Shown here: piece by piece, positions 1 to 12,196 of the stretch
How the letters are laid out: every line of letters begins with the position of its first letter
Position numbering within the stretch: position 1 is the first letter of the stretch
Source: a virus
Strand: one strand, 5' to 3'
Virus record (IMG/VR): IMGVR_UViG_3300020163_000008
Span: 1 to 36,834 of that record
DNA: 36,834 nt
Translations under genes and position numbers: made by a program
The notes under the pieces: generated by a model
The model's database searches: none
What the model was told of the DNA's origin: nothing
What the model saw: only the letters and a program-made list of their open reading frames with translations

Positions 1-51
1 AACGGAAACTTTGCAGCGACAGTTATTTACTGTCGCTGCAAAGTTTCCGTT
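1..51. repeat. Perfect 23-bp fold-back palindrome at the window start
   Basis: Bases 1-23 are the exact reverse complement of bases 29-51, with a 5-base loop (TATTT). In the second copy of this sequence at the right end (36709 onwards), the 29-51 arm is preceded by different bases and there is no inverted arm. The 1-21 arm is therefore probably a snap-back artefact of amplification or assembly and not phage sequence. It could in principle be a real hairpin terminus, but that would need an explanation for the uninterrupted coding frame across the junction. Confidence 0.8.
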
Positions 52-147
52 TGCACGAATATCGAGCAAGTCACCTGCCGAGTTTAGAGAGTTTGCAGGC
101 ATCGAATAGCTTGCAACAACTATATCATTTGCACCGGCTGAAGCAGG
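22..147. repeat. Terminal direct repeat, left copy (126 bp)
   Basis: Bases 22-147 are identical to 36709-36834. This is the signature of a circular or circularly permuted molecule assembled as a linear contig; the unique length is about 36,687 bp. The repeat lies inside a protein gene whose frame continues across the junction, so it is redundancy of the assembly and not a duplicated functional site. Confidence 0.95.
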
Positions 148-10234: not shown

Positions 10235-10987
10235 ATGCAAAATAAAACCTTATCAGAAATGCTTAACGATGCCCTTAATTGCCCGGGCAAATTATTAGAG
10301 GTTTACAGCTATTTTCATAATTACAGTTTGTCTAATCAGTTATTGGCAAATTTGCAATTACCTAAAGCCGAGCCTATCAATACTTTTAAAGGCTGGCAGA
10401 AGCTCGGGCGTAATGTAAAGAAAGGCGAAAAGGCTATTGAATTGATGATGCCTAAGGTTGTTAGCAAAGAGGACGAAAAAACCGGCGAAAAAGAAACATT
10501 TATTGCGGGATTTTTTACAAAGCGTGCTTGGTTTGGTTTGTCACAAACGGAAGGCGAAGACTATGCAGAGGCTGCACAAATTCCGAACTGGGACAAAGAC
10601 AAAGCCCTTGCGGAACTTGGCATAGAAATATCGGCTTTCGAGCATACAAACGGCAACGTGCAAGGATATGCTAAAGGCTCACGGGTTGCAGTCTCTCCGA
10701 TTGCAGCATTGCCGCACAAAACTTTATTCCATGAGTTGGCTCATGTTGTTTTGGGACACACAAAAGAAGCTTTAATGAGTGACGACGAGAAAACGGAAAA
10801 AAACATAAAAGAAGTCGAAGCCGAAAGCGTCGCATACATACTTTGCAGCCTTTTAAATCTCCCCGGGGTTGAGTATTGCAGGGGTTATATTCAAAATTGG
10901 CTAAATGGTGGCGTATTACCTGAAAAGTCATCGGCGAAAATTTTCGGAGCGGCAAATAAAATCTTAAACGCAGGAAAGGCGGCATAA
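10235..10987 (+). CDS. ArdC-like antirestriction protein with zinc metallopeptidase domain
   Basis: A 250-residue protein with the two-domain layout of ArdC. The N-terminal ssDNA-binding-type domain (about 1-105) shows the typical YSxxNQLL-like helix, F-x-G-W-x-x-L-G and V-K-K-G-E-K-A-I motifs. The C-terminal zincin domain has HELAH (166-170) and a downstream glutamate helix EVEAESVAYI (193-202) as the probable third zinc ligand. ArdC-type proteins protect incoming DNA from restriction. It is co-directional with and close to the Tas-like gene. Family assignment is confident; the target here is unknown. Confidence 0.88.
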   Translation: MQNKTLSEMLNDALNCPGKLLEVYSYFHNYSLSNQLLANLQLPKAEPINTFKGWQKLGRNVKKGEKAIELMMPKVVSKEDEKTGEKETFIAGFFTKRAWFGLSQTEGEDYAEAAQIPNWDKDKALAELGIEISAFEHTNGNVQGYAKGSRVAVSPIAALPHKTLFHELAHVVLGHTKEALMSDDEKTEKNIKEVEAESVAYILCSLLNLPGVEYCRGYIQNWLNGGVLPEKSSAKIFGAANKILNAGKAA

Positions 10988-11100: not shown

Positions 11101-11940
11101 ATGAAAACCAATTTAGAACAAGAAGCAAAGTTTATAGCGATTAAAAAGCTCGATAAAGATTTAATAGACGCTATGGTAGTAACAACAGTCGACGAGGCAA
11201 GATTCTTAGTCTCAAACTATTACACCATGCAAAATGACCGCATTCGATCATACGGACAAGGCAGGGAGCTATTTAAAGCAGGCGAGCCGCATCAGGTTAT
11301 TTCGTTCCTTGCAGGGCAGTCCGAGATATTGGAAGAGCAAATCAAGAAGGCACTTGATCGCTACACCGACAGCCACCCTATAGGCAAATGGCTTAAATCA
11401 GTTGTGGGCATAGGTCCGGTAATTTCGGCAGGGTTGACTTCAAATCTTGACATTACTAAAGCACCGACAGCAGGGCATTTTTGGAGTTACGCAGGTTTAT
11501 GCCCTGAACAGAAACGAGCCAAAGGGCAGAAAATAAACTGGAATCCGGATTTAAAGCGTTTGCTTTGGTTGCTCGGTGAAAGTTTTGTAAAGGTAAGCGG
11601 CAACGATAAAGCTGTTTACGGCAAGCTTTATGCAGAACGCAAAAAATACGAACAAGCGAAAAATGAAGCAGGCGATTATAAAGAGCAAGCACTTGAGAAA
11701 GTTAAAGTTGTGGGCAAAGATACCGAATCTTACAAGTTTTATTCACAAGGCAAGTTGCCGCCTGCACATATTCACAGGCGAGCTTGCAGATTTGCAACCA
11801 AGATTTTATTAAGCCATCTTCAGGAAGTTTGGTATTGGCATGAGTATAAAAAAGCACCGCCTGCACCATATGTAATGGCACATTGCGGACATGCTCATAA
11901 AATCCCGATCCCGAATAAACCTAGCTTTGTTAAAAATTAA
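11101..11940 (+). CDS. Tas-like RNA-guided protein (Nop / IS110 Transposase_20-like domain, no nuclease)
   Basis: A 279-residue protein. An N-terminal helical/coiled-coil part (1-100) leads into VVGIGPVISAGL (101-112), SYAGLCPEQKRAKG (129-142), a basic helix NPDLKRLLWLLGESF (148-162), YGKLYAERKKYE (173-184) and a final helix HRRACRFATKILLSHL (225-240). This order matches the C-terminal Transposase_20 domain of IS110 transposases, which is related to the Nop domain of box C/D snoRNP proteins. The N-terminal DEDD RuvC-like catalytic domain of IS110 is absent and there is no HNH motif. A striking 18-bp periodic array begins at the stop codon. Together they fit the TIGR-Tas systems, with this as a nuclease-less Tas (TasA type). 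The protein would bind guide RNA and target DNA without cutting. The alternative, an isolated IS110 remnant, is less likely because the domain is intact and the array is ordered. Confidence 0.85.
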   Translation: MKTNLEQEAKFIAIKKLDKDLIDAMVVTTVDEARFLVSNYYTMQNDRIRSYGQGRELFKAGEPHQVISFLAGQSEILEEQIKKALDRYTDSHPIGKWLKSVVGIGPVISAGLTSNLDITKAPTAGHFWSYAGLCPEQKRAKGQKINWNPDLKRLLWLLGESFVKVSGNDKAVYGKLYAERKKYEQAKNEAGDYKEQALEKVKVVGKDTESYKFYSQGKLPPAHIHRRACRFATKILLSHLQEVWYWHEYKKAPPAPYVMAHCGHAHKIPIPNKPSFVKN

Positions 11941-12196
11941 GTCATTTACCGATATAGAATCAAGTACGGGAAACGAGTCAATCTAGATGTTAGAATCATT
12001 GTCAACAAACGAGCCATATCCACGAATAGAAATATTAGCAGTTAGCGAGCCGTACCAATGAATAGAACCACTATTCTAAAGCGAGTCAATAGGAGAGATA
12101 GAACCAGCATTTGAGAACGAGCCAGATTAGCGAATAGAAACATTTCGCATTAGCGAACCAAATAGAGCAATAGAATCATAAAACGTCAGTGAACAA
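11936..12196 (+). repeat. TIGR-like array: alternating 9-bp boxes and 9-bp unique spacers, 36-bp unit
   Basis: Thirteen clear boxes recur every 18 bases from 11954 to 12178. Box A (consensus ATAGAAYCA) begins at 11954, 11990, 12026, 12062, 12098, 12134 and 12170. Box B (consensus ARCGAGYCA) begins at 11972, 12008, 12044, 12080, 12116 and 12152. Degenerate B-like boxes flank the array at 11936 (overlapping the Tas stop codon) and 12188. All spacers between boxes are exactly 9 bases and all differ, e.g. AGTACGGGA, TTGTCAACA, TTAGCAGTT, TTTCGCATT. The 9+9+9+9 unit equals the 36-nt tigRNA length reported for TIGR-Tas. There is no coding frame: a TAG recurs inside every A box. The array is probably co-transcribed with the Tas-like gene; the transcribed strand is not proven. 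Confidence 0.9.

What the first reader, a model, noticed from the sequence alone, without database searches (positions are those of the whole stretch)
11101..12196. A TIGR-Tas-like RNA-guided system carried by a phage
Seen: a 279-residue protein with an intact IS110 Transposase_20/Nop-like domain and no RuvC or HNH part, immediately followed by a non-coding array of alternating 9-bp boxes and unique 9-bp spacers with a 36-bp unit. Known: TIGR-Tas systems, reported in 2025 in phages and parasitic bacteria, pair a Nop-domain Tas protein with an array processed to 36-nt guide RNAs that target DNA with two spacers. The protein is related to box C/D snoRNP proteins and to IS110. Inference: this is a nuclease-less member, so it would bind targets and silence or mark them, not cut them.
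Basis: partly seen in the sequence, partly recalled or inferred. Interest (0 to 1): 0.97.

Follow-up and report, generated by a model that had tools for sequence, protein, structure and literature searches.

The report
Nuclease-less TIGR-Tas system in phage
This phage carries a compact RNA-guided DNA-binding system (a TIGR array plus a TasA protein with no cutting domain), a genuine new member of a family published in 2025, whose natural targets and purpose are still unknown.

Summary
ORF 11101-11940 is a solo Nop/Transposase_20 protein with no RuvC or HNH part. It is followed by a non-coding array of seven 36-nt units (11936-12196) whose periodicity exceeds all 5000 shuffles. Sequence and fold searches put TasR and TasH first and IS110 behind. 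The protein falls in a strongly supported TasA-only clade. Relatives from other phages carry the same kind of 36-nt dual-repeat array beside the gene.

So this is TIGR-TasA itself, not merely TIGR-like. TasA, its phage location and 36-nt guides are already in Faure et al. 2025 (PMC12045711): a new member of a known kind.

New details. The array begins inside the tasA stop codon, as in several relatives. In this clade the ninth spacer base is A/G in about 98% of guides, so spacers are probably 8 nt and repeats 10 nt. Some guide pairs are kept intact between phages whose tasA genes are only about 75% identical.

I found no convincing target for any guide in own, related-phage, phage-database or Acidobacterial sequence. 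Function beyond 'RNA-guided binding without cutting' stays inference.

The parts
11101..11940 (+). tasA: solo Nop-domain (Transposase_20) TIGR-associated protein, 279 aa, no nuclease domain
   Evidence: Pfam PF02371 E 3.8e-06; phmmer to TasR 9mty 6.8e-14 and TasH 21kl 5.7e-08; phrog_4285 E 3.3e-46; AF2 model, Foldseek top 10 all Tas
11936..12196 (+). dual-repeat TIGR array, seven 36-nt units plus degenerate last edge; non-coding
   Evidence: lag-36 identity 0.521 vs shuffle maximum 0.389 of 5000; column profile; no ORF of 60 aa inside it on either strand; no Rfam match
11936..11944 (+). 5' truncated edge repeat containing the tasA stop codon (TAA 11938-11940, then GTCA)
   Evidence: box C within 0-4 nt of the tas stop in window, L014, L037, L007, L015, L018, L020, L025
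11945..11971 (+). unit 1: spacer A TTTACCGAT, loop ATAGAATCA, spacer B AGTACGGGA
11972..12007 (+). unit 2: edge AACGAGTCA, A ATCTAGATG, loop TTAGAATCA, B TTGTCAACA
12008..12043 (+). unit 3: edge AACGAGCCA, A TATCCACGA, loop ATAGAAATA (degenerate box C), B TTAGCAGTT
12044..12079 (+). unit 4: edge AGCGAGCCG, A TACCAATGA, loop ATAGAACCA, B CTATTCTAA
12080..12115 (+). unit 5: edge AGCGAGTCA, A ATAGGAGAG, loop ATAGAACCA, B GCATTTGAG
12116..12151 (+). unit 6: edge AACGAGCCA, A GATTAGCGA, loop ATAGAAACA, B TTTCGCATT
12152..12187 (+). unit 7: edge AGCGAACCA, A AATAGAGCA, loop ATAGAATCA, B TAAAACGTC
12188..12196 (+). degenerate last edge repeat AGTGAACAA

Best explanation
It is a TIGR-TasA system of the dual-repeat type. 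Mechanism, step by step: (1) tasA and the array are read as one transcript, because the first guide starts within the tasA stop codon and no terminator lies between them (seen in the sequence; transcription itself is inferred). (2) A host RNase, working only when Tas protein is present, cuts the array in the edge repeats into 36-nt tigRNAs (36-nt guides are shown for FpTasA, TaTasR and SpTasH in the paper, the Tas requirement for TasR; inferred here). (3) A TasA dimer holds one tigRNA by its two repeats. Spacer A pairs with one strand and spacer B with the other strand of a short DNA site of the form A, 0-2 nt, reverse complement of B (strands and gap are published for TasR; the order is my derivation from its 8-nt 3' overhangs; for TasA all of this is inferred). 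(4) Having no nuclease, TasA unwinds and bends the site and blocks transcription or replication there (inferred). The likeliest targets are rival mobile elements or host genes; which of these is open.
For: Closest solved sequences: TasR 6.8e-14, TasH 5.7e-08, IS110 members only 0.2-0.4. Foldseek: ten Tas chains at E 4.7e-07 to 1.9e-04, then IS621 at 6e-03. Array layout matches the paper. The edge repeat is nearly that of Salicola CGphi29 TasH (AGCGAGCCA) and of Microcystis phage Mvi-JY20 (TGCGAGCCA). The nearest relative, L014/L002 (76% aa), has a 3-unit array in the same place with wholly different spacers. A prophage in Acidobacteriaceae bacterium KBS 96 (55% aa, with an integrase gene) has a 6-unit array. 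Fifteen phage contigs at 51-57% identity carry window-type repeats, most in clear long arrays. TasA-only clade of 16 rows, support 100/100. No HNH/RuvC match.
Against: No RNA data exist for this phage. Some boxes are degenerate, so a few units may be dead. The structure model is only moderate (pLDDT 71, TM about 0.4-0.5). No target was found: the A+rc(B) geometry is not enriched over three control geometries in 352 kb nor, once sequences fetched because they matched a guide (L030-L036, L060-L062) are set aside, in about 1 Mb. Exact IMG/VR hits for two guides look like chance. None of six window guides has an ungapped 18-nt hit in 50,697 phage records, although a positive control was found.
Confidence: 0.93

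Rival explanations
1. A domesticated or decaying IS110-family transposase whose flanking repeats are remnants of a bridge RNA or a coincidental tandem repeat.
For: The only Pfam domain is Transposase_20 of IS110; PHROGs labels the family 'transposase'.
Against: No DEDD catalytic domain; fold and sequence searches rank Tas proteins far above IS110. The 36-nt two-repeat arrays recur beside relatives from many phages, which a remnant would not do.
Confidence: 0.02
2. A TIGR-TasA used by the phage on its own genome or its own att/host site, as an RNA-guided DNA-bending aid for integration or for timing its own genes.
For: The paper proposes that TasA bends DNA and could aid integrases. A relative is a prophage with tasA a few kb from its integrase gene.
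Against: No self-match to any window guide with fewer than three mismatches in the expected geometry, no integrase found in the window (not every ORF tested), and no self-target in the relatives beyond chance. KBS 96 guide 1 has no site in its host genome at up to 2 mismatches.
Confidence: 0.1
3. The guides act on RNA rather than DNA, like box C/D snoRNPs, to block or mark transcripts.
For: The Nop domain is shared with box C/D proteins and TasA lacks a DNA-cutting part (paper).
Against: No fibrillarin-like methyltransferase among the ORFs tested. TasR, the best studied member, cleaves DNA and showed no activity on RNA (paper). Not tested for TasA.
Confidence: 0.1
4. A relic: the tas gene is intact but the array is degenerating and no longer used.
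For: Imperfect boxes in units 3, 4, 6 and the last edge; ninth-base purine only 10 of 14 against about 98% in relatives.
Against: The protein keeps residues conserved in the clade; all spacers are in phase; repeat variation is common in relatives that still have many units.
Confidence: 0.08

Closest known systems
TIGR-TasA with dual-repeat array (FpTIGR of Flavonifractor plautii; Faure et al. 2025, PMC12045711)
   Same: Solo Nop protein, downstream array, two alternating repeats, 36-nt guides, no nuclease
   Different: No terminator found after the array, whose first repeat lies in the tasA stop codon; the FpTIGR repeats and protein themselves were not compared here
TIGR-TasH of Salicola phage CGphi29 (SpTIGR)
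   Same: Nearly the same edge repeat (AGCGAGCCA), 36-nt unit, phage-borne; probably the same 10+8 repeat/spacer split
   Different: TasH carries an N-terminal HNH nuclease; here it is absent
TasA of Microcystis phage Mvi-JY20 (PP438412, annotated hypothetical)
   Same: TasA plus dual-repeat array starting at the stop codon
   Different: 29% aa identity; its array ends in a terminator-like hairpin
TasA of cluster A mycobacteriophages (annotated 'transposase')
   Same: Solo Nop protein with paired spacers between CCA and CG boxes
   Different: Stem-loop type array upstream of the gene, five slots
IS110 / IS621 bridge-RNA recombinases
   Same: Share the Transposase_20/Nop RNA-binding domain
   Different: Have a DEDD catalytic domain and a single bridge RNA, not an array

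Membership tests
TIGR-Tas | Nop-domain protein related to TasR/TasH | tested here: met
TIGR-Tas | Array of two alternating 8-12-nt repeats with short spacers, about 36-nt unit, next to the gene | tested here: met
   relatives
TIGR-Tas | Both repeats end in a shared box C (CCA-like) | tested here: met
   YCA in most repeats, imperfect in a few
TIGR-Tas | Array begins with a 5' truncated edge and ends with a 3' truncated edge followed by a terminator | tested here: inconclusive
   truncated or degenerate edges at both ends; no terminator found
TIGR-Tas | Array processed into 36-nt tigRNAs bound by the protein | not testable with these tools
   needs small-RNA sequencing and pull-down
TIGR-Tas | tigRNA directs DNA binding with spacers on opposite strands | not testable with these tools
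   no natural target identified
TasA subtype | No HNH or RuvC nuclease domain | tested here: met
   alignment A2 shows the N-terminal HNH region of TasH missing
TasA with stem-loop array | Palindromic stem in place of the edge repeat | tested here: not met
   edge repeats are short linear boxes
IS110 transposase | N-terminal DEDD catalytic domain | tested here: not met
   no Pfam match
TasA-TasParB operon | parB-like gene in operon with tasA | tested here: not met
   neighbours are an ArdC-like gene and short ORFs without a ParB match

The most novel reading that the evidence does not exclude
TasA arrays of this clade are a heritable, shuffled set of non-cutting guides by which phages repress chosen genes of rivals or hosts. 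Guide pairs kept identical across phages whose tasA genes are only about 75% identical would be held by conserved targets, making this clade the place to find the first natural TIGR targets.
Probability: 0.25. Interest if true: 0.75.

Novelty: new member of a known kind. Interest (0 to 1): 0.42.

Why it matters
TIGR systems are new, and what the nuclease-less TasA form does is an open question stated by its discoverers. This window adds a clear phage-borne example in a well-resolved clade that includes a prophage in a sequenced bacterium (KBS 96). Phages with known hosts (Microcystis, mycobacteriophages) carry related TasA systems. That gives tractable material for finding targets and testing binding without cutting.

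Tried and rejected
Self-targets in the phage: only matches with three or more mismatches, as many in control geometries. Cross-targets among relatives: 143 units over 352 kb and 411 units over 1 Mb with 8-nt spacers and gaps 0-5, no enrichment once loci fetched by guide matches are set aside. IMG/VR exact scans for units 2 and 5: five loci (two of them the same sequence) and two loci with the same local sequence, none sharing genes with the window; about chance level. Phage database scans for six window guides: none, with a working positive control. KBS 96 guides: guide 1 none in its genome; guide 2 three hits against one control hit in 150 genomes. One conserved guide in 257 Acidobacterial genomes: four hits against no control hit, two of them one orthologous locus, about what I estimate for chance. 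The idea that guide variants differ at synonymous codon positions looked attractive in two cases but was not borne out by eye over the full list of variants; no formal test was made. The -35-like TTGACA in unit 2's predicted target and the start-codon-like look of unit 5's target were not supported by hits. A first genome-contig scan found no relative. One early record look-up was a wrong guess at an accession.

Full report
OBSERVATION. ORF 11101-11940 (+) encodes 279 aa. Its only Pfam match is Transposase_20 (residues 97-159, E 3.8e-06); no HNH, RuvC or DEDD domain is found. Directly behind it lies an array with a 36-nt period: lag-36 identity 0.521 against a maximum of 0.389 in 5000 shuffles, and the strongest 36-nt periodicity in the genome. 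Column by column it alternates an edge repeat A[AG]CGAG[CT]CA and a loop repeat ATAGAA[CT]CA with fourteen different spacers in seven units. The first edge repeat is truncated and contains the tasA stop codon. The array is non-coding, matches no Rfam family and has no terminator-like hairpin behind it.

IDENTITY. phmmer against solved chains gives TasR 9mty (6.8e-14) and TasH 21kl (5.7e-08), with IS110-type enzymes at 0.2-0.4. The AlphaFold2 model built on ten window and locus sequences (pLDDT 71, moderate) returns ten Tas chains first (E 4.7e-07 to 1.9e-04), then IS621. PHROGs places it in phrog_4285 'transposase', a label I consider wrong for this family.

RELATIVES. L014 (the same contig as L002; 76% aa) has a three-unit array fused to the tasA stop, sharing no spacer with the window. 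A profile scan of IMG/VR returned 14 loci, nearly all with 36- or 37-nt arrays near the gene; those marked as carrying the HNH region form one TasH clade. A pattern scan for window-type repeats brought 15 phage contigs with TasA 51-57% identical, most with clear long arrays. A prophage of Acidobacteriaceae bacterium KBS 96, with integrase and methylase genes, has a 55% identical TasA and six units; four other Acidobacterial genomes match strongly and three of them show short arrays. Microcystis phage Mvi-JY20 has the same arrangement. In a maximum-likelihood tree the window sits with L014 in a TasA-only clade of 16 rows (100/100); the HNH-bearing TasH form a separate clade.

ANATOMY SHARED BY THE CLADE. 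In at least eight loci the first box C lies within 0-4 nt of the tas stop codon (TAA|CCA, TAG|CCA, TAA|GTCA and so on), so gene and array look like one transcript. Among 263 distinct guide pairs in relatives, the ninth base of spacer A is G or A in 258 and of spacer B in 256. That fits 10-nt repeats and 8-nt spacers, as the paper gives (16 nt in all) for SpTIGR (context); in the window it is 10 of 14. Guide pairs are inherited as pairs: contigs with tasA only about 75-77% identical at the DNA level still share guides letter for letter (CTCCGTTT/TTCAAAGC in L084 and L137; GCTTTGAT/TATGAATA in L096 and L102), while other units are gained, lost or point-mutated. This is either selection on both spacers together or recent exchange of units; I cannot separate the two.

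TARGETS. From the published 8-nt 3' overhang I derived the target as A, 0-2 nt, reverse complement of B (my derivation). Tests against the own phage, relatives, IMG/VR for two guides, 50,697 phage records for six window guides (control found), the KBS 96 genome and 150 relatives and 257 Acidobacterial genomes for one conserved guide gave nothing above what I estimate for chance. Chance matches to such short split targets are frequent in large collections, and gapped targets were not covered in the phage database, so this is weak evidence, not proof of absence.

MECHANISM. Shown in the literature: Tas proteins including TasA bind 36-nt guides; TasR and TasH use the two spacers on opposite strands; TasA's function is unknown (PMC12045711). 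Shown here: the gene, the array, their linkage, the missing nuclease and the family. Inferred: processing, DNA binding, and a blocking effect on rivals or host genes. The 0.93 given to the best explanation is for its identity as a TIGR-TasA that binds without cutting; for step 4 as silencing of rivals or host genes I would give about 0.6.

VERDICT. A sound, well-read finding, but a new member of a family already described, including its nuclease-less form in phages. The value lies in the clade around it and the still open question of targets.

Noticed in passing
L005, L006, L072-L079 (HarryOW, Euphoria, Tripl3t, Chanagan, Maroc7, Dexes, Forsytheast, Sumter, Francis47, Froghopper): TasA genes of cluster A mycobacteriophages (annotated 'transposase' or 'hypothetical') have upstream about 335 nt with five stem-loop guide slots (four or five recognised per phage by my search pattern); each slot mostly keeps its stem while spacer pairs come in alleles that are mixed between phages. 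Five of these guides had no ungapped match in the phage collection.
   Followed up: partly
L072-L079 downstream of tasA: The gene right after tasA, or one gene further on, in these mycobacteriophages is annotated Cas4 exonuclease; whether it has to do with guide gain is unknown.
   Followed up: no
window 10235-10987: Gene just upstream of tasA matches the ArdC N-terminal domain with a weak metallopeptidase match: an anti-restriction type neighbour.
   Followed up: no
window 1-60 and the last 200 nt: The first 51 nt form a near-perfect hairpin and share 'TTATTTACTGTCGCTGCAAAGTTTCCGTTTGCACGAAT' with the end region of the record, and L011 runs across the record's ends: likely a complete, circularly permuted genome with a small assembly artefact.
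   Followed up: partly
L018, L021, L025, L110: Near-duplicate guides within one array (e.g. CAGCCAATA/GATACTGGA and CAGCCAACA/GATCATGGA in L018) suggest arrays also grow by copying and drifting of units.
   Followed up: partly
phrog_4285: This PHROGs family, named 'transposase', matches the window's solo-Nop TasA best, and mycobacteriophage relatives are annotated 'transposase'; the label is probably misleading.
   Followed up: partly
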